A stretch of DNA of 64,000 nucleotides from Prevotella sp. (lineage in GTDB: Bacteria; Bacteroidota; Bacteroidia; Bacteroidales; Bacteroidaceae): positions 28,585-92,584 of the forward strand of contig JAFRRN010000020.1 in NCBI GenBank assembly GCA_017428055.1, read 5' to 3'. Below the pieces are notes generated by a model that searched no databases, was not told where the DNA came from, and saw nothing but the letters and a program-made list of their open reading frames with translations. How positions within the stretch are numbered: the stretch's first letter is position 1; every line of letters begins with the position of its first letter. Both the position numbers and the translations under genes were made by a program. Below are positions 1,474 to 53,629 of the stretch, in pieces.

Positions 1474-2436
1474 TCACAATGCCTGAATTTCTTCTTCTGA
1501 TAATCCCGTGACTTCCGAAATGAAAGAAGTAGCCATGCCACTCGACTTTAAATTCCTCGCAATTTCCATCGACTTTTTCCTTTCGCCTTCTACCATGCCC
1601 TCGGCTCTTCCCTCGACTCTTCCCTCAACAATTCCCTCGGCTCTTCCCTCAACTAATCCTTTTGCTCTTCCCTCAGCCATTCCCTTGGCTTGCGCTTCTT
1701 TACGGGCTGTGGTGAGGGCATATTTCAAAGTATTGTAATTGTCAAGGTAAACCTTCCAACTTTCATCGTATTCAAGTCTATCCTGCTCATTGAAGTTTGC
1801 TATCTTGGCCTGCTCAAACAATTTCGTGAATATCCGCTCTTGAAGTGCTGCCGGCCTATCCAATAGCCGCGAAAGGTTCTTGAGAACGAAAAGCCACTTG
1901 TCGAACATTCCCTCCAGTTCCTCCTCGGTCTTCTTGAACTTGGGCATCTCGAGATAAATGAAGGTCAGTTTGTCATAAAACACCTCATGTGTCTTCGTAT
2001 CCATCAACTTCACCTCATGATGATAATAATTATCATCTTTGAAGTCAAAGGTGAAATTCAGGATTCCAATGGTATATACACCCTTCAAATGATAGTCCCA
2101 TTTCTTGCCACGCTCCGCCTGTTGCCGAATAGGGGTCGTGGCATAATAGATAGTCCTGTCCTTGAAGAACTCCTGCGTCATGTTTTGCATCTCGACGATG
2201 AACCTCTCTCCCCTTTCGTTTTCACAATAGACATCAAACACCTGCACCCTTTCCAAGGCATTATCCCCAAATTGTTCGGTTTTCAGGTATGTCAAGTCTT
2301 TGATCTCCTGCTCTCCTTTGAGAAGAGCATTTAAGAAACTGATAAGGAACTCTTTGTTAAACTCCGTCCCAAACAAATACTTAAAACCAAAATCGGTATA
2401 AGGATTGACGAATACATCTGGTGAATTTGTTATCAT
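1474..2436 (-). CDS. Rpn family recombination-promoting nuclease / PD-(D/E)XK nuclease family transposase
   Basis: 320 residues. The N-terminal two thirds match the PDDEXK_2 family (Rpn-like, often labelled putative transposase): NPYTDFGFKYLFGTE at the start, then the nuclease core with Asp68 (VFDVYC) and the Glu82-x-Gln84 pair (IVEMQN), the ExQ variant typical of this family. Rpn proteins are DNA endonucleases that promote RecA-independent recombination. Residues about 250-285 are a degenerate run of EGRAEG/EGRVEG units, a common length-variable linker in the family. The C-terminus (ISEVTGLSEEEI) is the usual short helical tail. A TAnnTTTG-type element lies 52 nt upstream. Confidence 0.88.
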   Translation of the reverse strand: MITNSPDVFVNPYTDFGFKYLFGTEFNKEFLISFLNALLKGEQEIKDLTYLKTEQFGDNALERVQVFDVYCENERGERFIVEMQNMTQEFFKDRTIYYATTPIRQQAERGKKWDYHLKGVYTIGILNFTFDFKDDNYYHHEVKLMDTKTHEVFYDKLTFIYLEMPKFKKTEEELEGMFDKWLFVLKNLSRLLDRPAALQERIFTKLFEQAKIANFNEQDRLEYDESWKVYLDNYNTLKYALTTARKEAQAKGMAEGRAKGLVEGRAEGIVEGRVEGRAEGMVEGERKKSMEIARNLKSSGMATSFISEVTGLSEEEIQAL

Positions 2437-2615: not shown

Positions 2616-3743
2616 TCATCTTTCCTTTTCCCCACCTATAGTGGTTGGTGAGGATGATTCTATGAACTCACAAAACTCATTCAACGACTGTTGGATAACC
2701 TCTTTTGGTATTAGCATTCGATGGTATTCCGCAACCATTGTTGGACTTAGACTACGACTCATAGCATATTCCACGACGCTATGGTCTGCTGAAGGACAAA
2801 GCAGAATCCCAATACTTGGATTCTCGTTGCTACGTCTAACATCCCTATCCAAGGCCTCAAGATAAAATTCCAATTGTCCTATATACTCTGGCTTGAAATG
2901 TTTTGCTTTCAACTCAATAGCAACCAAACATTGCAATCCCCTATGATAGAACAGCAAATCTATCTTAAACATAGAACCACCAACTTGCAGAGGATATTCA
3001 CTATCAACGAACAAGAAATCCTTACCTAGCTCCAAGATGAATTGTTTGATGTGTTCCAAAATGCCTTTATGCAATTGCTTCTCACTATGTCGGCTTGGTA
3101 AATTGAGGAAATCGATGAAAGCCCTGTCTTTAAACTGTGCCACCGACTGTGGATAAGCAGACTTGAGGCCAATCGACAAATTCTTCTTGTCGCCCATGAG
3201 CGAGCCAAAAGTATCATTCAAGATACATCGTTGTAGTTCTTTATACTTCAAATGTTCTCTATTGGCATATATGATGTAGAAGATTTGTCGCTCTACATCC
3301 TTGCAACGGTTCAATATCTCAATATGGTTGGAGAATGTCGTTAATGTCAAAACTTTCGGCATTTGTGCAGATGCCGTCTGCACAATTTCTGTGTTTATTT
3401 GTGCAGATGCCGCCTGCACAGAAAGAGGAAAAGACAAAGATGCCACTCGCGAATAGAATTCCGTGGAGGAATATGCTTCATAGAACATAACCATATTATA
3501 CAAATTCCTTCGACTATATCCTTTTAGTGTAGGGTCCTTTGCCCTCAGATATTCCGACAATTGTGTGACGACCTTACTACCCCACTCTTTGCTTTTTAAC
3601 CGCTGTGACACTATCTGCCCAACCTTCCAACTCATCTGTAACGACTCCTCGTTGACATCAACAAGTGCCTTCGTGCGGTGAAACACTATGACATTGCGTA
3701 TTTCTTCAAATTGTTTCTCAAAATTTTGTAGCTCGTTGCTCAT
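2616..3743 (-). CDS. DUF1016 / YhcG-type PD-(D/E)XK nuclease
   Basis: 375 residues. The N-terminal DUF1016_N region (about 10-205) includes VGQIVSQRLK and LKGYSRRNLYNMVMFYEAY; the C-terminal nuclease domain (about 215-355) has Asp262 (FKIDLLFYHR) and Glu277-x-Lys279 (AIELKAKHF), the PD-(D/E)XK catalytic set. The family is often found in or beside type I and IIG restriction loci; its role is not settled. The gene begins 27 nt after the stop of the restriction-methyltransferase, so the two are likely one transcript. Oddly, residues 109-128 contain two 12-residue units (VQAASAQ and VQTASAQ) encoded by near-identical DNA palindromes, in a place where relatives vary in length. Confidence 0.9.
   Translation of the reverse strand: MSNELQNFEKQFEEIRNVIVFHRTKALVDVNEESLQMSWKVGQIVSQRLKSKEWGSKVVTQLSEYLRAKDPTLKGYSRRNLYNMVMFYEAYSSTEFYSRVASLSFPLSVQAASAQINTEIVQTASAQMPKVLTLTTFSNHIEILNRCKDVERQIFYIIYANREHLKYKELQRCILNDTFGSLMGDKKNLSIGLKSAYPQSVAQFKDRAFIDFLNLPSRHSEKQLHKGILEHIKQFILELGKDFLFVDSEYPLQVGGSMFKIDLLFYHRGLQCLVAIELKAKHFKPEYIGQLEFYLEALDRDVRRSNENPSIGILLCPSADHSVVEYAMSRSLSPTMVAEYHRMLIPKEVIQQSLNEFCEFIESSSPTTIGGEKER
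3363..3420. repeat. Two palindromic units 36 bp apart inside the DUF1016 gene
   Basis: Copy 1 (3363-3385) is TTGTGCAGA, loop TGCCG, TCTGCACAA: perfect 9-bp arms. Copy 2 starts at 3399 with the same left arm and loop, and a right arm with two changes. The 36-bp spacing equals 12 codons, so the frame is kept. Confidence 0.8.
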
Positions 3744-3770: not shown

Positions 3771-6700
3771 TTATTGCTCTCTCATATATTCATCCCGCGT
3801 GATGGGCGTTTGTGGGTCAACGATGACAACTTCATCATAGGTCAAGCCGTAGAGACGGTAGACGCGGAGGTCTATCTCCTTGTCGGTGTAGGCTATCTGT
3901 CGGGATAGGTCTTGGCAGGCCTGGGCGTTTTGGTTGAAGTAATCCTCCCACTCGTCTTGTTGCGAAAGCGAGAGTTTTACTTTCTGCTTCCTCAACTCCG
4001 AGACAAAGGAACCAAAGGTCATTTGGTCAAACTTCTGCAACGAACCCGTTATCCTTACGCCCTCCACGTTATCAACCAAACGGCGGAGGAAACGGTTTCG
4101 TTTCTCTTGCAACTCTTTGTTTAGGGAAATCATCGTGTCGGCAAGTGAAACGAAAGGCTGTTGAGATTCTATATCTATATTTGGAATAGGTACTTCAGCT
4201 AAAGGCTTATTAAAATATTCTCTGGCATTCCCCTTGGCTTTACCTATGAAACCATAAAACCAATCAAGTAACTTTGAATTGAGCAATGAGAGTAAATACT
4301 TAATTGAGATGTCTGAATTATCTTTAATGATAATAGCTCTAATGTCTCCTCCATCATTAAAGTATTGATTGTCATCAAATGCAAATCTGTTATGTTCGGC
4401 ACGATAAGGAACAATTAGCTTTTCTTTTGCATCGAAAACGACTTTGTTCCTTGGTCTTTCAAGTCTATACCATTTGTACGATCCCTTAATAACTTCATTT
4501 CTTTCAGATAAAACTTGTTTATGACTTAATAAATACTGATAAACGTTAGGATACTTCTCTATCTCTGTCGCATTGTCTGTGTATATTAAAACATTCCCAC
4601 GATTATTGATGAAATACGGCTGAATGTCTCCATTCTTCACATTTTTCCTAATGATGTCGGTTTCAAAATTGTTGACACGTGCAAATTCATCTGATACTGT
4701 AAACACATCGTTTTTCCCAGAAGTGGAGCCCTTCTCAATAATAGCAATATCTTCCATCCGAATAGAAACGCCTTTCATCTTATCTATAATAATGGATGAT
4801 GTTGTATCTGCTATAAGCCACGAATCTTGGAGAGTATTCCTTTCGAGGCGACAACTATTGAAATCACTTAACAAATCAATTCCATTGATTGATAAATCAT
4901 TCTTCTTGTTGTATATCTCAATGGGTTCCTTTAGTTCTTTCTTTTTTGCAAATAGAATGGCTGTATGAACATTTGCATCCTCAAATATCATTGCATTATG
5001 GAAATTGATAATTCGTTCTGCATAATTGCCAAGGAAAATCCTTAGTTTCTTTGCATATTCATTTCCTATATAATAATTTGAAGTGATGAAGCCAAGTAAT
5101 CCATGATGATTAAGCAAACCTACCCCTTGATATATAAAATAGTACATCAAATCATTATATCCTGTATGTATTTCTGAATAATGGGATTTGAAATATTCAT
5201 GATTATGTGGTTGTGTATTGATATTCACATACGGCGGGTTTCCAATCACCACATCGAATCCTCCTTTGGCAAAGACCTTTGGGAACTCGTGCTGCCAGTC
5301 AAACGCCTTGTCGCCTGCTACGGCGGGGTCGCTAATGAGGGAGTTGCCGCATTTGATGTTTTGGTTGAGGGAATTGAGCTTGCGGTGGGGCTTGGCGGTG
5401 CGGAGCCAGAGGGCGAGTTGTGCTATCTCCACGCTCTCCTCGTTGATGTCCACGCCATAGAGGTTGTTTTCGAGGATGCTTTTTTCCACGTCTTGGAAGA
5501 TGAGAGATGAGCCTGCCACCTTCGCTTCCATCTCATCGATGAGTCGATGCTCCGCGATGAGGAACGACAGGGCGGCGTTGAGGAAGGCACCGCTGCCGCA
5601 TGCGGGGTCGAGGATGGTGACCTGGAGGAGCCATTCGCGGTATTGCCGCAGCTGGTCGAGGAGACGTCGCTTGGTGGCGGTCTGTCGCTTTTGGTCGGCG
5701 AAGTATTGCTCCTCGTCGATGCCCAGCTCGTGTTTCTTCTCTTGGCAGAGCCGTCCCACGGTGTGGGTTACAATGTATTTCGTGATGTATTGCGGCGTGT
5801 AGAACACGCCGTCTTGCTTGCGCTTGGAGACGACAGGGGCTTCTGTTTGTTGCGGTGACACCGCAACAGACGGGACGAAGGGGGTTGTAGAGGCGAGAGC
5901 CTTTGCCTTGACCTCTTCAATCTCAGAGAGCGAATGCTCGAAGATATGCCCGAGGATGTTCACATCCACGTCGCTCTCGAAGTCGTAGGCGGAGAGGCGG
6001 CGGGTGTGTTCCACCAACAACGGGTCGCTGATGGTAAGCGCGTCGAGCACCTCGTCGGGCTTGAAGAGCCCTCCGTTATAGGCAAATATCTCGTATTTCT
6101 TGCCTTGGTAGCCCTCATTCAGATAGTTGAAGTGTTTTTTCAGGATGTCATAGAGAGGCCGGTATTCGTCATTGTCCTTCAGCAACTGCCACCGCTCGAT
6201 GATATGGGCAATCATGTTTGTGGGCAACAGCCCGCCATCCTCGGCGAAGAAGATGAAGAGGAGGCGGTCGAGCAGTTTCTGCGTCTTCTTGAAGAGCAGC
6301 AACTGCCAGTCCTTGATGTCGCTTGCCCAAGGGTTGCTCTCCCCATACGGATTGTTGGCGAGTATGTCTGCGAAGAGCAGACGCTTGAATTGCGAGTAGT
6401 CACGGTATAGGGCGTTGGTGATCTGGTCCTCTTTCGACACCGACTCCCCCATCATCCGCAACGCCGTGCCTTTCCTTACTTCCTGCCAGGCAAGGCAGAG
6501 ATAGAGTTCCTTGAAATCATCCTCAGCCATATAGAAGAGGCTCCACTCACGGTAAGCCACGGCATTGTCGATGTAAAGGCGCAGCTTCTCGAAATTGGAT
6601 GTGATGACCAGACGGGTGCCAACGTGCTGGTTCTTATACCCAAAGGCCTGTGCCTCGACCTTGGAGAGGTCGGTCGTCTTGTGGTCTTTCAGCTCAATCA

Positions 6701-6995
6701 CACCGATGACCTTGCCCTCGACGATGATTGCCCCGTCGGCTTTCTTGGCATTGGTGGCGTTTTTCTGCTCCGTGATGAGGTTGTAGCCGGGCGAGGGATT
6801 GAGGGTATAGCCCAATATTTTCACGAACAACTCGCGCAGGAAGCCCTCCTGGAACTGCTCTTCCTTCGACTGGAGGATGTTAGCCTGTATCTCCCTGTCC
6901 ATGAAATAACGGCGGTACTTGTCCCACGCCCCGTCGGTCTCCTCCTTTGGCAGGGCGGCAAGATACTTCTTGACGATATTCTTCTGAAACAACAT
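3771..6995 (-). CDS. Type IIG restriction enzyme / N6-adenine DNA methyltransferase (Eco57I-like)
   Basis: 1074 residues, one polypeptide that cuts and methylates DNA. The N-terminal nuclease domain (about 45-130) shows Asp87 (KKADGAII) and Glu101-x-Lys103 (GVIELKDHK). The methyltransferase core has the SAM-binding motif DPACGSGAF (463-471) and the catalytic NPPY (586-589), followed by a long C-terminal region that should carry target recognition. Length and order fit Eco57I-type enzymes (about 1000 residues). A good promoter lies about 60 nt upstream, and the DUF1016 nuclease follows after 27 nt. The middle of the recognition region (roughly 4200-5200) is visibly AT-richer than the flanks, as expected for an exchanged specificity segment. 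Confidence 0.92.
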   Translation of the reverse strand: MLFQKNIVKKYLAALPKEETDGAWDKYRRYFMDREIQANILQSKEEQFQEGFLRELFVKILGYTLNPSPGYNLITEQKNATNAKKADGAIIVEGKVIGVIELKDHKTTDLSKVEAQAFGYKNQHVGTRLVITSNFEKLRLYIDNAVAYREWSLFYMAEDDFKELYLCLAWQEVRKGTALRMMGESVSKEDQITNALYRDYSQFKRLLFADILANNPYGESNPWASDIKDWQLLLFKKTQKLLDRLLFIFFAEDGGLLPTNMIAHIIERWQLLKDNDEYRPLYDILKKHFNYLNEGYQGKKYEIFAYNGGLFKPDEVLDALTISDPLLVEHTRRLSAYDFESDVDVNILGHIFEHSLSEIEEVKAKALASTTPFVPSVAVSPQQTEAPVVSKRKQDGVFYTPQYITKYIVTHTVGRLCQEKKHELGIDEEQYFADQKRQTATKRRLLDQLRQYREWLLQVTILDPACGSGAFLNAALSFLIAEHRLIDEMEAKVAGSSLIFQDVEKSILENNLYGVDINEESVEIAQLALWLRTAKPHRKLNSLNQNIKCGNSLISDPAVAGDKAFDWQHEFPKVFAKGGFDVVIGNPPYVNINTQPHNHEYFKSHYSEIHTGYNDLMYYFIYQGVGLLNHHGLLGFITSNYYIGNEYAKKLRIFLGNYAERIINFHNAMIFEDANVHTAILFAKKKELKEPIEIYNKKNDLSINGIDLLSDFNSCRLERNTLQDSWLIADTTSSIIIDKMKGVSIRMEDIAIIEKGSTSGKNDVFTVSDEFARVNNFETDIIRKNVKNGDIQPYFINNRGNVLIYTDNATEIEKYPNVYQYLLSHKQVLSERNEVIKGSYKWYRLERPRNKVVFDAKEKLIVPYRAEHNRFAFDDNQYFNDGGDIRAIIIKDNSDISIKYLLSLLNSKLLDWFYGFIGKAKGNAREYFNKPLAEVPIPNIDIESQQPFVSLADTMISLNKELQEKRNRFLRRLVDNVEGVRITGSLQKFDQMTFGSFVSELRKQKVKLSLSQQDEWEDYFNQNAQACQDLSRQIAYTDKEIDLRVYRLYGLTYDEVVIVDPQTPITRDEYMREQ

Positions 6996-7167: not shown

Positions 7168-7294
7168 TATCTGCCACAGATAATAAGATTATATGACACA
7201 TATAATCACTTTATATGATACAGATAATAACTTTATATGATACATATAAAATCATTATATGCCGCATATAATAAACGTAAATACGGCATTTACG
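7168..7294. repeat. 22-bp tandem palindrome array, five units plus an in-register sixth dyad
   Basis: Five head-to-tail 22-bp units start at 7168, 7190, 7212, 7234 and 7256. Each begins with a 6-3-6 dyad: TATCTG/CAGATA in unit 1, TATATG/CATATA in units 2, 4 and 5, and one mismatch in unit 3. Unit 1 differs from the others in both arms at paired positions, preserving symmetry. A sixth dyad with unrelated arms (CGTAAAT, ACGGC, ATTTACG; 7276-7294) has its centre at 7285, exactly 22 bp after that of unit 5. This fills most of the 337-bp gap between the restriction gene and trmO. No unique spacers exist, so this is not a CRISPR array. Confidence 0.9.
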
Positions 7295-7332: not shown

Positions 7333-7998
7333 TCAGTCGATGACAAAGAGGTCTTTGCCCTCCACTCGGAAATGAATGTCGTGGCCGTCGAAGAGCATCC
7401 CATAGACCTTGTTGGGGTCGTCGTGGTAATGCGGACGTGGGTCGAGCGCGAGCGTTTGCGACAATGCCGCCCGCTCGTCATCGTCGAAAAGCGATGCCAC
7501 TGAGGACGACAGATGCACCGTGAGCCTCGGCCATGAGCGGCGGTCGGTGAACCCGCCCCGCGCCTCAGGGTGTGCATCGGCGTATGGAAGATAGGGCTTG
7601 ATGTCGTAGATGGGTGTGCCGTCCATGAGGTCTGCGCCAAGGACATGGATAATGGGGCCACGGGGCGACTCCCATTCGATACGGTCAATCTTCACCACCG
7701 ACAGCCCTAACGGGTTCGGACGATAGGGCGAGCGCGTGGCAAACACCCCCATACGCTCGTTGCCTCCCAACACGGGCGGTCGCACCACAGGGCTATTGGC
7801 ACCGTGCTTGTTGGCGGAAAACTCCCATATCAACCAGATATAGTCAAACTCTTCCATGCCACGGAGGGAATCGACGTTGCGAAACGCCGGTTCAAACACG
7901 ACTTCTCCTTGCAGCTCTTGCACCAGTCCGCTCTGCTTGGGAATGCCAAACTTGGTTGGAAAAGGGGAATGGAATGTGGCAATGGGCTGTATCTCCAT
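7333..7998 (-). CDS. trmO: tRNA (N6-threonylcarbamoyladenosine37-N6)-methyltransferase TrmO
   Basis: 221 residues, full length for the TrmO/TsaA family. It methylates t6A37 in tRNA-Thr using SAM. Family landmarks are visible: an N-terminal IATFHSPFPTKFGIPKQ segment, FDYIWLIWEFS, and GVFATRSPYRPNPLGLSVV, the strongly conserved SAM-site block. The C-terminal part (YDIKPYLPYAD) is also typical. The ATG lies one base after the stop of the upstream PAP2 gene, so the two are translationally coupled. Confidence 0.95.
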   Translation of the reverse strand: MEIQPIATFHSPFPTKFGIPKQSGLVQELQGEVVFEPAFRNVDSLRGMEEFDYIWLIWEFSANKHGANSPVVRPPVLGGNERMGVFATRSPYRPNPLGLSVVKIDRIEWESPRGPIIHVLGADLMDGTPIYDIKPYLPYADAHPEARGGFTDRRSWPRLTVHLSSSVASLFDDDERAALSQTLALDPRPHYHDDPNKVYGMLFDGHDIHFRVEGKDLFVID

Positions 7999-20530: not shown

Positions 20531-20561
20531 CCATATCCGTCGCAAAACATTCGTTCATTTC

Positions 20562-20627
20562 GGCTATAGCCGCACGGCCTTTTGGCTTAAGCCGCAAGGT
20601 CTTTTGGCTATAGGCAAAAGGTGACAA
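20562..20627. repeat. 22-bp tandem palindrome array, three units
   Basis: Palindromic 10-mers GGCTATAGCC, GGCTTAAGCC and GGCTATAGGC start at 20562, 20584 and 20606, exactly 22 bp apart, separated by 12-nt spacers that all contain CTTTT or AAAAGG. The first two keep symmetry despite different centres; the third has one mismatch. It lies in the 258-bp gap between the small membrane gene and the rpmA terminator. Confidence 0.85.
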
Positions 20628-24850: not shown

Positions 24851-26890
24851 ATGATTGTCTGCATAGCCGAAAAGCCCAGCGTGGCACGTGACATCGCACG
24901 GGTCATTGGTGCCACCAAGTCCATGCAGGGCTACATGGAGGGCAACGGATTCCAAGTGACATGGACTTTCGGACACCTCTGCACCCTCAAGGAGCCACAC
25001 GACTACCAACCCAACTGGAAGCATTGGAGTCTCTCGGCTTTACCCATGCTGCCCCAGCGGTTTGGCATCAAACTTATCGAAGACGACGGCATCAAGAAGC
25101 AATTTGCCATCATTGAGCGGCTCATGCAACAGGCCGACGGCATCATCAACTGTGGTGACGCCGGGCAAGAGGGTGAGTTGATACAGCGATGGGTGATGCA
25201 AAAGGCACAAGCCAAATGCCCCGTGCGGCGGTTGTGGATTTCCTCGATGACAGACGAGGCGATCAAGGAGGGCTTCCAGACGCTCAAAGACCAGTCGGAA
25301 TACCAACCTCTATACTTGGCAGGATTGTCAAGAGCCATCGGCGACTGGATCCTCGGCATGAACGCCACGCGCCTCTATACGTTGAAATATGGACAGAACC
25401 GACAGGTGTTGAGCATCGGAAGGGTGCAAACCCCTACCCTTGCGCTCATCGTCAACCGCCAAAAAGAGATCGACAACTTCACGCCCGAGCCATATTGGAT
25501 TCTCGCCACCATCTACCGCGACACGCAATTCACCGCCACCAAGGGGAAGTTCACGTCGAAAGAGGAGGGTGAGAAAGCTTTTGCCACCATCGAGGGGAAG
25601 CCCTTTACCGTGACCGACGTGCAAAAGAAGAAAGGTACCGAGGCTCCGCCAAGGCTCTTCGACCTCACCTCCCTGCAAGTGGAATGCAACAGGAAGTTCG
25701 CCTATTCCGCCGAGACGACGCTCAATCTTATCCAAAGCCTGTACGAGAAGAAATACACCACCTACCCCCGTGTAGACACCCAGTTTCTCCCCGATGATGT
25801 CTATCCCAAGTGTCCGAACATCATGAACGGGCTATACCAAACCACGTTTGGCGGCATCAAGCCCTACGCACCAATCGTCAAGCCATTGGGCGGAAAGCCC
25901 CTCCTCAAAAGCAAGAAGGTGTTTGACACTTCCAAAGTTACCGACCACCACGCCATCATTCCCACGGGGGTTATTCCGAAAGCCCTCTCCGACATGGAGC
26001 GCAACGTGTTCGACCTGATCGCGAAGCGGTTTATCGCGGCTTTCTATCCCGATTGCAAGTTTTCCACCACGACGGTATTGGGCGAGGTGGGCAATCCTGA
26101 AGACCAAGAACGCATCGAGTTCAAGGTGACAGGCAAGGAAATCCTTTCACCTGGATGGCGCACCGTATATGCCTCGGAGGCAAAAACCGTGGAAGAGGAT
26201 GATGCAAAGAAAGACAATGAGGAGCGTACCTTGCCCAATTTTGTCAAGGGAGAGAGCGGCCCGCACCAACCCACTCTCACGGAGAAGTGGACTACGCCGC
26301 CAAAATACTACACGGAAGCCACCCTGCTCAGGGCAATGGAGACGGCGGGCAAGTTCGTGGAAGACGAGGAACTTCGTGCCGCATTGAAGGAAAATGGCAT
26401 AGGAAGGCCATCGTCAAGGGCGGGCATCATCGAGACGCTCTTCAAACGGCATTACATCCGTCGCGAGCGAAAGAATCTCATCGCCACGCCCACGGGCATC
26501 GAACTCATCGACATCATCAAGGAGGAACTGCTGAAGAGTTGCGAACTGACAGGCATCTGGGAGAAGAAACTCCGCGACATCGAGCATCGCAAATACGATG
26601 CCGCACAATTCGTAGATGAGCTGAAACAGCAGATCACCACCATCGTCAACGATGTGATGCGGGAAAACAACACGCACCACATCACCCTCACCACCGACGA
26701 GGATGTCAAGAAAAAGAAGCCCAAACGCCAAGCCACCAAGAAAGAAACCACGCTAAAACCCTCCGATAGCCTCATCGGCAAGCCCTGTCCCGTCTGCGGC
26801 AAAGGAACCATCGTCAAGGGGAGAACCGCCTACGGCTGCTCTGATTGGCAGCATTGCCAATACCGCCTGCCATTTAATGATAACTCATAA
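24851..26890 (+). CDS. topB: DNA topoisomerase III
   Basis: 679 residues. The TOPRIM domain opens the protein (IAEKPSVARDIARVIGA); DAGQEGELIQRW is its acidic metal motif. The type IA core follows, with VQTPTLALIVNRQKEIDNF and the catalytic Tyr in YTTYPRVDTQFL. A Lys-rich linker leads to a C-terminal zinc ribbon (PCPVCGKGTIVKGR...CSDWQHC). It relaxes and decatenates DNA through single-strand passage. The stop codon lies in the first unit of the 9-bp repeat that follows. Confidence 0.95.
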   Translation: MIVCIAEKPSVARDIARVIGATKSMQGYMEGNGFQVTWTFGHLCTLKEPHDYQPNWKHWSLSALPMLPQRFGIKLIEDDGIKKQFAIIERLMQQADGIINCGDAGQEGELIQRWVMQKAQAKCPVRRLWISSMTDEAIKEGFQTLKDQSEYQPLYLAGLSRAIGDWILGMNATRLYTLKYGQNRQVLSIGRVQTPTLALIVNRQKEIDNFTPEPYWILATIYRDTQFTATKGKFTSKEEGEKAFATIEGKPFTVTDVQKKKGTEAPPRLFDLTSLQVECNRKFAYSAETTLNLIQSLYEKKYTTYPRVDTQFLPDDVYPKCPNIMNGLYQTTFGGIKPYAPIVKPLGGKPLLKSKKVFDTSKVTDHHAIIPTGVIPKALSDMERNVFDLIAKRFIAAFYPDCKFSTTTVLGEVGNPEDQERIEFKVTGKEILSPGWRTVYASEAKTVEEDDAKKDNEERTLPNFVKGESGPHQPTLTEKWTTPPKYYTEATLLRAMETAGKFVEDEELRAALKENGIGRPSSRAGIIETLFKRHYIRRERKNLIATPTGIELIDIIKEELLKSCELTGIWEKKLRDIEHRKYDAAQFVDELKQQITTIVNDVMRENNTHHITLTTDEDVKKKKPKRQATKKETTLKPSDSLIGKPCPVCGKGTIVKGRTAYGCSDWQHCQYRLPFNDNS

Positions 26891-26975
26891 GACTTATAAG
26901 ACCTATAAGACTCATAAGACAAATAAGACTTATAAGACCTATAAGACCAATAAGACCAATAAGACCTATAAACCT
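26886..26975. repeat. Ten-unit 9-bp tandem repeat (NATAAGACN)
   Basis: Ten contiguous 9-bp units such as TATAAGACC and AATAAGACC run from the topB stop towards the next gene. The open frame through it (THKTYKTYK...) is a by-product of the repeat and is not called as a gene. Confidence 0.9.
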
Positions 26976-29855: not shown

Positions 29856-29892
29856 GCTTTAATGGATGTGAAACGGTGAACGAAAAGGTATG

Positions 29893-29958
29893 GTTTACTC
29901 GAAATAAACATATCGTTTACAACTATTAAACATGGTGTTTACACCGACTAAACCATAC
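29893..29958. repeat. 22-bp tandem palindrome array, three units
   Basis: Units start at 29893, 29915 and 29937. Each has GTTTA, a 7-nt variable centre, TAAAC and 5 nt, giving exactly 22 bp. The array ends form a further 14-bp inverted repeat (AAAGGTATGGTTTA at 29884, complement ending at 29962). It occupies the gap between two converging genes and could also work as a bidirectional terminator. Confidence 0.88.
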
Positions 29959-53516: not shown

Positions 53517-53563
53517 GTCTTTATATGTTTGGTTAGAAAAATCATCCGATGCATAGACTGGCC

Positions 53564-53629
53564 GTCCAAAAGGCTTGGACACCCCGTCCAAGATACTTGG
53601 ACGACTCGTCCAAAAGGCTTGGACGGCAC
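53564..53629. repeat. 22-bp tandem palindrome array, three units
   Basis: Units begin at 53564, 53586 and 53608: GTCCAA, a 5-nt centre (AAGGC, GATAC, AAGGC), TTGGAC and five variable bases, exactly 22 bp each. Arms are invariant within the array and unlike those of the other three arrays. It fills most of the gap between the C1 peptidase stop and the peroxidase fusion start. Confidence 0.9.

What the first reader, a model, noticed from the sequence alone, without database searches (positions are those of the whole stretch)
7168..7294. 22-bp palindrome array beside a restriction operon; a sixth unit keeps the register with different arms
Five tandem 22-bp units carry 6-3-6 dyads (TAT[CA]TG/CA[GT]ATA), and unit 1 differs from the others at paired positions in both arms. 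A sixth dyad with unrelated arms (CGTAAAT/ATTTACG) is centred exactly 22 bp after the fifth. Three further arrays in this window share the 22-bp period but not the sequence. A constant period with changeable, self-complementary arms suggests selection or a copying process acting on symmetry and spacing (two helical turns), for example binding of a dimeric protein family, hairpin-templated expansion, or arrayed RNA hairpins. I know of no described family like this.
Basis: partly seen in the sequence, partly recalled or inferred. Interest (0 to 1): 0.87.

Follow-up and report, generated by a model that had tools for sequence, protein, structure and literature searches.

The report
22-bp phased binding-site arrays in Prevotella
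A Prevotella genome and several of its relatives carry short DNA elements between genes, built from mirror-image sites placed 22 base pairs (two helix turns) apart; the sites differ between element families and species while the spacing stays fixed, which points to an unidentified protein that docks in rows on DNA.

Summary
Window 7168-7270 has five 22-bp units and a sixth dyad (7276-7294) centred exactly 22 bp on. A sister species keeps the unit count and the sixth unit. The array is one of 11 class-A arrays in this genome, beside 19 class-C and about 28 class-B arrays. Its place next to a restriction operon looks incidental.

Class B is the clearest case. GTCCAA-N5-TTGGAC occurs 83 times in 4.2 Mb (reversed-pattern control 0), nearly always in triplets at exact 22-bp steps. 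Its six-base arms are constant in 97-100% of 67 units while loops and linkers vary. Class C adds exactly 11 bp in one kind of unit. Arrays with other arms but the same period occur patchily in other Prevotella. None were seen in small samples of other families.

Constant half-sites with constant helical phasing fit rows of protein dimers on DNA better than RNA hairpins or slippage. Arrays come and go between species, so they probably also spread as REP/MITE-like repeats. PINSR, a published Prevotella repeat of unknown function, is very probably one. No binding protein is shown. HU-HIG proteins are a weak candidate: 3 of 7 such genes have an array within about 225 bp.

The parts
7168..7182 (.). 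dyad 1 TATCTG-CCA-CAGATA (end unit; on the - strand its centre is GTGGC)
   Evidence: end-unit type; TATATG/CATATA at the same place in L153
7190..7204 (.). dyad 2 TATATG-ACA-CATATA
7212..7226 (.). dyad 3 TATATG-ATA-CAGATA (one mismatched pair)
7234..7248 (.). dyad 4 TATATG-ATA-CATATA
7256..7270 (.). dyad 5 TATATG-CCG-CATATA (end-unit centre type)
7276..7294 (.). sixth dyad CGTAAAT-ACGGC-ATTTACG, other arms, centre exactly 22 bp after dyad 5; kept in register in the sister species (one arm base changed there)
53562..53625 (.). class-B triplet, three GTCCAA-N5-TTGGAC at 22-bp steps
   Evidence: G000:C6:82148-82208
20556..20621 (.). class-E array (GGCTATAGCC-like), 22-bp period; same class in L024 and, at exact 22-bp steps, in the sister species (L245)
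29891..29956 (.). weak 22-bp array of three GTTTAC...TAAAC dyads, half-sites like class C
7333..7998 (-). trmO (tRNA methyltransferase O) gene; its 3' end faces the array
3771..6995 (-). Eco57I/MmeI-like restriction-modification protein; its 5' end faces the array

Best explanation
The array is one copy of a species-specific family of dispersed intergenic elements whose working part is a row of inverted half-sites laid down at multiples of 11 bp (dyad centres at 22 bp). I infer that a dimeric, sequence-specific DNA-binding protein family occupies neighbouring dyads on one face of the helix, so that the 22-bp step is set by contacts between dimers, and that each class (A, B, C ...) answers to its own specificity, which diverges fast between species. 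The elements lie between genes of any function and orientation, mostly nearer the 3' end of the upstream gene, and appear, change class or vanish at orthologous sites. They have therefore most likely spread as non-autonomous REP/MITE-like repeats and are kept intact because the bound complex matters (to the element's spread, to the nucleoid, or both). Shown: architecture, constancy of arms, spacing, dispersal, turnover. Inferred: the protein, cooperative binding, mobility. Unknown: which protein and which benefit; HU-HIG proteins are a candidate only.
For: Class B arm pairs are constant in 65-67 of 67 units of 22 arrays, with 0 paired double changes, while the commonest base of central and linker columns is at 33-70%. 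With spacers of 0-14 allowed, all 67 exact units in 23 loci have spacer 5 and all 44 successive centre distances are 22; in 461 kb, GTCCAA followed by TTGGAC within 59 bases occurs only at spacers 5, 27, 49 (18 of 18; in the outward order 9 of 10 fit, one at 42). Genome-wide: 83 units, control 0; the 50 listed by place are 16 triplets and one doublet; 54 neighbour pairs, control 0. Class C: TGTTT/AAACA spacers 9 (51) and 20 (14) of 70 in 19 loci, i.e. plus 11 bp. Census of repeated half-site pairs: period 22 has 11 places in this genome against a mean of 0.14 at other periods; 10 against 1.24 in 80 named loci; 0 in 20 loci of other families of the order. Orthologous array with the same unit number. 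103 neighbouring genes miscellaneous.
Against: No binding protein was tested. The strands fold strongly (z -3.8 to -8.3), and loops 1 and 3 of class B are complementary more often than expected (6 perfect of 27 against 1.5, P=0.0025, but P=0.07 on the mean), as a nested hairpin would predict; classes C and A lean the same way (P 0.04-0.05), and in class A one outer linker pair is complementary (P=0.009). Class A shows some paired changes in inner arm positions and one between orthologs. Constant arms could partly reflect how copies were found, since the queries carried those arms. One pair of class-B arrays is 58 of 61 alike, so some copies may be young. The geometry is patchy: 2 of 37 further loci of the genus, both of one genome. 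G003 has arrays at 21 and 23 bp, so 22 is not absolute. The arm-swapped ortholog (L275) has a 1-bp longer third unit.
Confidence: 0.55

Rival explanations
1. RNA or single-stranded DNA hairpin arrays (REP/BIME-like): the palindromes act as transcript-end structures, RNA stabilisers or cruciforms.
For: Strong folds of all six stretches folded; loop 1-loop 3 complementarity; in same-strand contexts 23 of 28 arrays lie nearer the upstream gene's 3' end, P=0.0009 (genes from a simple finder of mine); class A paired changes.
Against: Class-B arms are constant in sequence instead of covarying; class-B and -C linkers that face each other in the nested fold are not complementary (P=0.96 and 0.97); 12 of 52 arrays lie between divergent genes; no terminator-like site at the window array; exact 11-bp insertion in class C.
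Confidence: 0.2
2. Purely selfish mobile repeats (MITE/PINSR-like): the phased sites are recognition sites of a transposase or recombinase, and the copies do nothing for the host.
For: Species-specific copy number (class B: 54 exact pairs here, 1 in one other of 398 genomes); the G374 copy is 87.5% alike to L059 over 80 bp, about 19 bp of it beyond the third unit; no array at two of five orthologous sites readable on both sides; class F is a fixed 95-bp element with inverted ends.
Against: Arms stay intact while loops and linkers of most copies have diverged, so something keeps old copies intact; I saw no inverted ends beyond the arrays in classes A-C; no linked transposase found.
Confidence: 0.15
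3. Ordinary minisatellite made by replication slippage.
For: Tandem units; about ten units in G392.
Against: Class B is nearly always three units; unit number conserved between species with 82% DNA identity; neighbouring units with different arms hold the register; dyad symmetry is not expected from slippage.
Confidence: 0.05
4. Operator array of the neighbouring restriction operon.
For: The array lies 170-300 bp upstream of the Eco57I-like gene.
Against: 103 genes beside class A-C arrays hit 179 Pfam families, none in more than 3 proteins.
Confidence: 0.04

Closest known systems
[quoted passage not shown] abstract, outline and sections 2.3 and 3.4 read)
   Same: Intergenic, 177-184 copies, no terminal inverted repeats, lineage-specific, function unknown; about three quarters of sites shared by two strains. 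Genome G108 (two contigs, tnaA-positive) has a dispersed repeat of about 140-230 bp, five copies in 40 kb outside predicted genes and one within about 240 bp of the tnaA match, made of 22-bp-phased dyads.
   Different: Reported as a 188-bp sequence; the sections read do not mention a 22-bp phase or dyads. The name of G108 is not told and the PINSR letters were not available to me, so the identity is probable, not proven.
BrickBuilt MITE of Porphyromonas gingivalis (PMC4596501; abstract and passages read)
   Same: Bacteroidales, dispersed, tandem short units, many copies.
   Different: 23-nt unit, leader and tail with small inverted ends; no constant half-site arms in the passages read.
REP/BIME elements and RAYT-linked GTAG and CGTC repeats (PMC3733652; abstract and passages read)
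   Same: 20-40 bp extragenic palindromes, often species-specific, several families per genome.
   Different: No GTAG tag and no unpaired CGTC tag in classes A-C, head-to-tail triplets at exact 22 bp instead of mainly inverted dimers, no 22-bp array at the one RAYT locus.
Chromosomal dimer-site systems such as parS/ParB, matS/MatP, Noc sites (recalled)
   Same: Dispersed palindromic sites of one specificity.
   Different: Those are single sites and widely conserved (recalled); here fixed triplets, several classes, species-specific.

Membership tests
REP element of a RAYT system | palindrome tagged by an unpaired GTAG (or CGTC) at one end | tested here: not met
   units of classes A-C: no GTAG; CGTC of class B lies inside the paired arm
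REP element of a RAYT system | RAYT (Y1_Tnp) gene flanked by the repeat | tested here: not met
   one PF01797 gene in the genome, flanked by GATGCCGTAGGCATC-type repeats and no 22-bp array in its 2.2-kb locus
MITE | terminal inverted repeats and fixed length | tested here: inconclusive
   class F yes (five copies of 95 bp); in classes A-C no inverted ends recognised beyond the array
MITE | target-site duplication and empty sites | not tested
   two orthologous sites lack an array but flanks are too diverged to read a duplication
PINSR | 188-bp consensus sequence | not testable with these tools
   consensus figure and primer table not held in the text read
PINSR | intergenic, many copies, copy beside tnaA | tested here: met
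   for the G108 repeat only: five copies in 40 kb, none overlapping a predicted gene, and one near tnaA; the species of G108 is not told, the total copy number was not counted
BrickBuilt | 23-nt tandem unit | tested here: not met
   period 22
CRISPR array | repeats separated by unique spacers, cas genes | tested here: not met
   no spacers between units; the five window proteins checked are not Cas
Array of operator or nucleoid-protein sites | sequence-specific half-sites, fixed spacing, helical phase | tested here: met
Array of operator or nucleoid-protein sites | a protein that binds them | not testable with these tools
   no binding data; HU-HIG neighbourhood only suggestive

The most novel reading that the evidence does not exclude
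A DNA-organising or mobile system of a new kind in Prevotella: a dimeric protein family with fast-changing specificity (perhaps the multi-copy HU-HIG proteins) that assembles as a fixed row of dimers (three on class B) at two-turn steps. Across species the half-sites of whole element families are replaced while the geometry (22 bp, 11-bp inserts, special end units, mirror-image outer sites) stays the same, in one case at the same orthologous site.
Probability: 0.3. Interest if true: 0.88.

Novelty: new variant of a known kind. Interest (0 to 1): 0.74.

Why it matters
Dispersed intergenic repeats of Bacteroidales have been catalogued by sequence and left without function. Here the sequence is the variable part and the geometry is the constant part, so searches by sequence miss the family: the exact class-B pair is in 2 of 398 genomes of the genus (this one included), while a sequence-blind scan finds the same geometry with other arms in several more. 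This gives a direct test (pull-down with a triplet), ties PINSR to a wider class, and may reveal a nucleoid protein or transposition system with rapidly evolving DNA specificity in abundant gut and rumen bacteria.

Tried and rejected
Rejected or set aside: operator of the restriction operon (neighbours miscellaneous); terminator (no terminator-like site at the window array; divergent contexts); Rfam family (no hit at gathering thresholds in the window); RAYT-driven REP. Peaks at 33 and 55 bp between dyads are mostly trivial, because an array of palindromes also has dyads between its units; they are not counted as evidence. A looser pair-score scan was noisy: at scores 14 and 15 period 22 (121 and 30) did not lead and period 33 exceeded it (138 and 49); at 16 both had 15 against 0-7 for the others. 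A motif-spacing scan gave weak peaks and led to class F. Register of flanking dyads: clear for class B, but for class C the offsets one unit out are not the top ones. Arrays just downstream of trmO in other species (clear in L153, L172 and L214 of 80 loci) hint at a favoured site, but the mean score at period 22 hardly exceeds the others (12.26 against 11.82-12.19), so I do not claim it. The idea that no two loops of one class-B array are alike (23 arrays) fell when four missing arrays were added: the window's own 53562 array has two equal loops.

HU-HIG: first only counted (7 genes); when checked, 3 of 7 loci hold a 22-bp array within about 225 bp of the gene (L282, L283, L285) against 9 of 118 windows of 3.3 kb from the genome sample (binomial about 0.012, worked by hand). 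This is post hoc and one of two families looked at, so it is a lead.

Literature: searches (held library only) found no description of 22-bp-phased dyad arrays in Prevotella. PMC5771137 was seen in passages.

Dropped rows: reverse-strand duplicates of the same place; L066 (contig edge) left out, kept in 78, 91, 92; one class-B array (L050) fell inside a predicted gene and one class-A array had no right neighbour. In the genus searches at most two candidates per genome were scored.

Full report
WHAT IS THERE. Unit 3 has one unpaired position, so four of five are perfect. It lies between the 3' end of trmO (7333-7998, minus strand) and the 5' end of an Eco57I/MmeI-like gene (3771-6995, minus strand). 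Further 22-bp dyad runs lie at 53562-53625, 20556-20621 and, weakly, 29891-29956.

MORE THAN CHANCE. A scan blind to sequence looked for runs of dyads at any period. In 461,538 bases of this genome, runs of three or more dyads with stems of 6 or more number 8 at period 22, 2 at 33, 1 at 44 and none at any other period from 14 to 66; shuffles gave none. A sharper statistic counts places where an inverted pair of identical 5-mer half-sites recurs with the same spacer at distance p. It gives 11 places at p=22 and 10 at 44 against a mean of 0.14 (maximum 2) for the other periods 14-44.

A GENOME-WIDE SET OF CLASSES. The window's array has relatives at ten other places in its genome (class A, 11 in all). 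Class B (CGTCCAAGCATCTTGGACG-like) and class C (TTGTTTACGTATCGTAAACAA-like) add about 28 and 19 places. Smaller classes have GTACCA/TGGTAC (D), GGCTATAGCC (E), and a 95-bp element with inverted ends AACATTTTTTGGG... (F, five copies of equal length in the sample). Of 52 class A-C arrays examined with a simple gene finder, 28 lie between genes of one strand, 12 between divergent and 10 between convergent genes; one is in a predicted gene and one has an undefined neighbour. In same-strand contexts 23 of 28 are nearer the upstream gene's 3' end (P=0.0009). The 103 neighbouring genes match 179 Pfam families, none in more than three proteins. So this does not look like a regulon of one function, and the restriction operon looks like a chance neighbour.

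STRICT ARCHITECTURE. Class B is the cleanest. The pattern GTCCAA-N5-TTGGAC occurs 83 times in 4.2 Mb, its reversed control 0 times. Two such units at exactly 22 bp occur 54 times, control 0. These numbers fit 26 triplets, two doublets and one lone unit, or 25 triplets and four doublets. Two doublets are visible; in each an outer third unit has a changed base in an arm (L054, L073). The 50 units listed by place are 16 triplets and one doublet. With spacers of 0-14 allowed, all 44 successive centre distances in 23 loci are 22 and all 67 spacers are 5. In class C the half-sites TGTTT and AAACA stand 9 bp apart in 51 and 20 bp apart in 14 of 70 cases, that is one turn (11 bp) more. Class-A arrays have end units with G[CT]GGC-type centres (9 of 22 ends against 1 of 33 inner units, P=0.0006); the window's units 1 and 5 are of that type. 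Class-B flanks keep the register: of all flanking offsets, -22 and +66 from the first unit have the highest mean dyad scores (2.73 and 2.59, background 1.79, sd 0.27), though the arms there differ.

ARMS ARE READ BY SEQUENCE. Across 67 class-B units of 22 arrays each arm pair is constant in 65 to 67 units with no double change, while central and linker positions vary. A structure that only needs pairing would show compensating changes. Class A does show some in inner arm positions (offsets 2, 4, 5), and the ortholog comparison has one clear case (below). Class-B arrays mostly differ well outside the arms (median pair 49 of 66), though the closest pair, in either orientation, is 58 of 61.

ORTHOLOGS. 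The nearest named relative (L153, Prevotella sp. RGIG7572, genome G422, 82% DNA identity over 2.9 kb) has the same array after trmO with five units and the sixth. The unit next to the restriction gene is TATCTG/CAGATA here and TATATG/CATATA there, a change on both sides; the sixth unit is CGTAAAT/ATTTACG here and CGTCAAT/ATTTACG there. Among five sites of own arrays readable on both flanks in the sister genome sample, one keeps the same class (L001); one holds an array with other arms (L008 against L275: TTACCA at 22-bp steps three times with TGGTAA partners, the third unit 1 bp longer; read by eye and checked, not called by the strict scan); one holds a class-E array at exact 22-bp steps beside other new sequence (L081 against L245); two have none (L002, L063). 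Arrays thus persist, change class, or vanish.

DISTRIBUTION. Class A was found in 1 of 398 sampled genomes of the genus (this one) and in the sister genome outside that sample (two places). The exact class-B pair is in 2 of 398, this one and a single copy in G374; by similarity two more genomes (G392, G078) have GTACAAG/CTTGTAC relatives with up to about ten units. The geometry is wider but patchy: 10 of 80 named loci around trmO (62 of the 80 titled Prevotella or Prevotellaceae) have a period-22 place, against a mean of 1.24 places for other periods, and each has its own arms, for example GTTCCCA/TGGGAAC and GTTTG/CAAAC; 2 of 37 other loci of the genus, both from G026; 3 of 34 loci of the tnaA set with G108 and G085; 2 of 40 of the sister genome. 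Twenty loci of other families of the order (270,942 bases) and 50 kb of E. coli gave none; these negative samples are small. G003 has arrays at 21 and 23 bp.

KNOWN RELATIVES. PINSR, a 188-bp intergenic repeat with 177-184 copies in P. intermedia and no known function (PMC4755523, section 3.4 read), is very probably one of these elements: genome G108 has a dispersed repeat outside predicted genes, with a copy near tnaA, made of 22-bp-phased dyads such as GTTTTGCGATGCAAAAC. The name of G108 and the PINSR letters were not available. BrickBuilt (23-nt units, PMC4596501) and GTAG/CGTC REPs (PMC3733652) differ in defining features. The one RAYT gene of this genome has other repeats around it and no 22-bp array.

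MECHANISM. Constant half-sites, variable spacers, exact two-turn steps and an 11-bp insert that keeps the helical face are what a row of dimeric DNA-binding proteins needs. The outer sites of class B tend to be mirror images (loops 1 and 3 perfectly complementary in 6 of 27 arrays, 1.5 expected, P=0.0025; mean complementarity P=0.07), which fits a complex with a two-fold axis on the middle site, but also a nested hairpin. Class-B and -C linkers that would face each other in that hairpin are not complementary, so I prefer the protein reading at 0.55. Dispersal and turnover suggest the elements also move or once moved. The protein is unknown. One lead: this genome has seven HU-HIG genes, and three of the seven have a 22-bp array within about 225 bp (L282, at least three and by eye about six units 150 bp downstream; L283; L285), against 9 of 118 windows of similar size; this was seen late, is post hoc, and proves nothing.

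Noticed in passing
L282:2101-2230, L283:1993-2058, L285:665-752: Three of the seven HU-HIG genes of the genome have a 22-bp dyad array close by (150 bp downstream, 225 bp upstream, about 100 bp downstream); base rate 9 of 118 windows.
   Followed up: partly
L029:19044-19138, L024:4105-4199, L021:13653-13747, L012:11761-11855, L027:18501-18595: Class F: five elements of exactly 95 bp with conserved inverted ends and diverged insides that still carry GGCAT/ATGCC at 22-bp steps.
   Followed up: partly
L112 (G000:C28, first 1100 bases): The only Y1_Tnp/RAYT-like gene found in the genome, flanked by GATGCCGTAGGCATC and GCCTGCCTTTAGGTAGGC repeats; a separate repeat system.
   Followed up: partly
L105:3191-3275 and L106:1985-2053 (genome G003): Arrays of dyads with 21-bp (TTATC...GATAA) and 23-bp periods instead of 22.
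   Followed up: no
L237 (genome G392, about 1420-1660): About ten units of GTACAAGCATCTTGTAGCGTCA at 22 bp: class-B-like centres with arms changed at paired positions.
   Followed up: partly
L009:1440-1600: Class-A-like array of at least seven units in which one arm pair has changed to GCT(T/C)T/AAAGC; RAYT-type repeats follow.
   Followed up: no
window 1474-2436: PD-(D/E)XK transposase-family gene (PF12784) with an in-frame 24-bp repeat near its end, beside a YhcG-type nuclease gene (2616-3743).
   Followed up: no
window 26887-26975: Ten copies of a 9-bp repeat (ATAAGACCT), not related to the 22-bp arrays.
   Followed up: no
L172:10680-10860 and L214:5225-5310: In two other species a 22-bp array with unrelated arms also lies just downstream of trmO.
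   Followed up: partly
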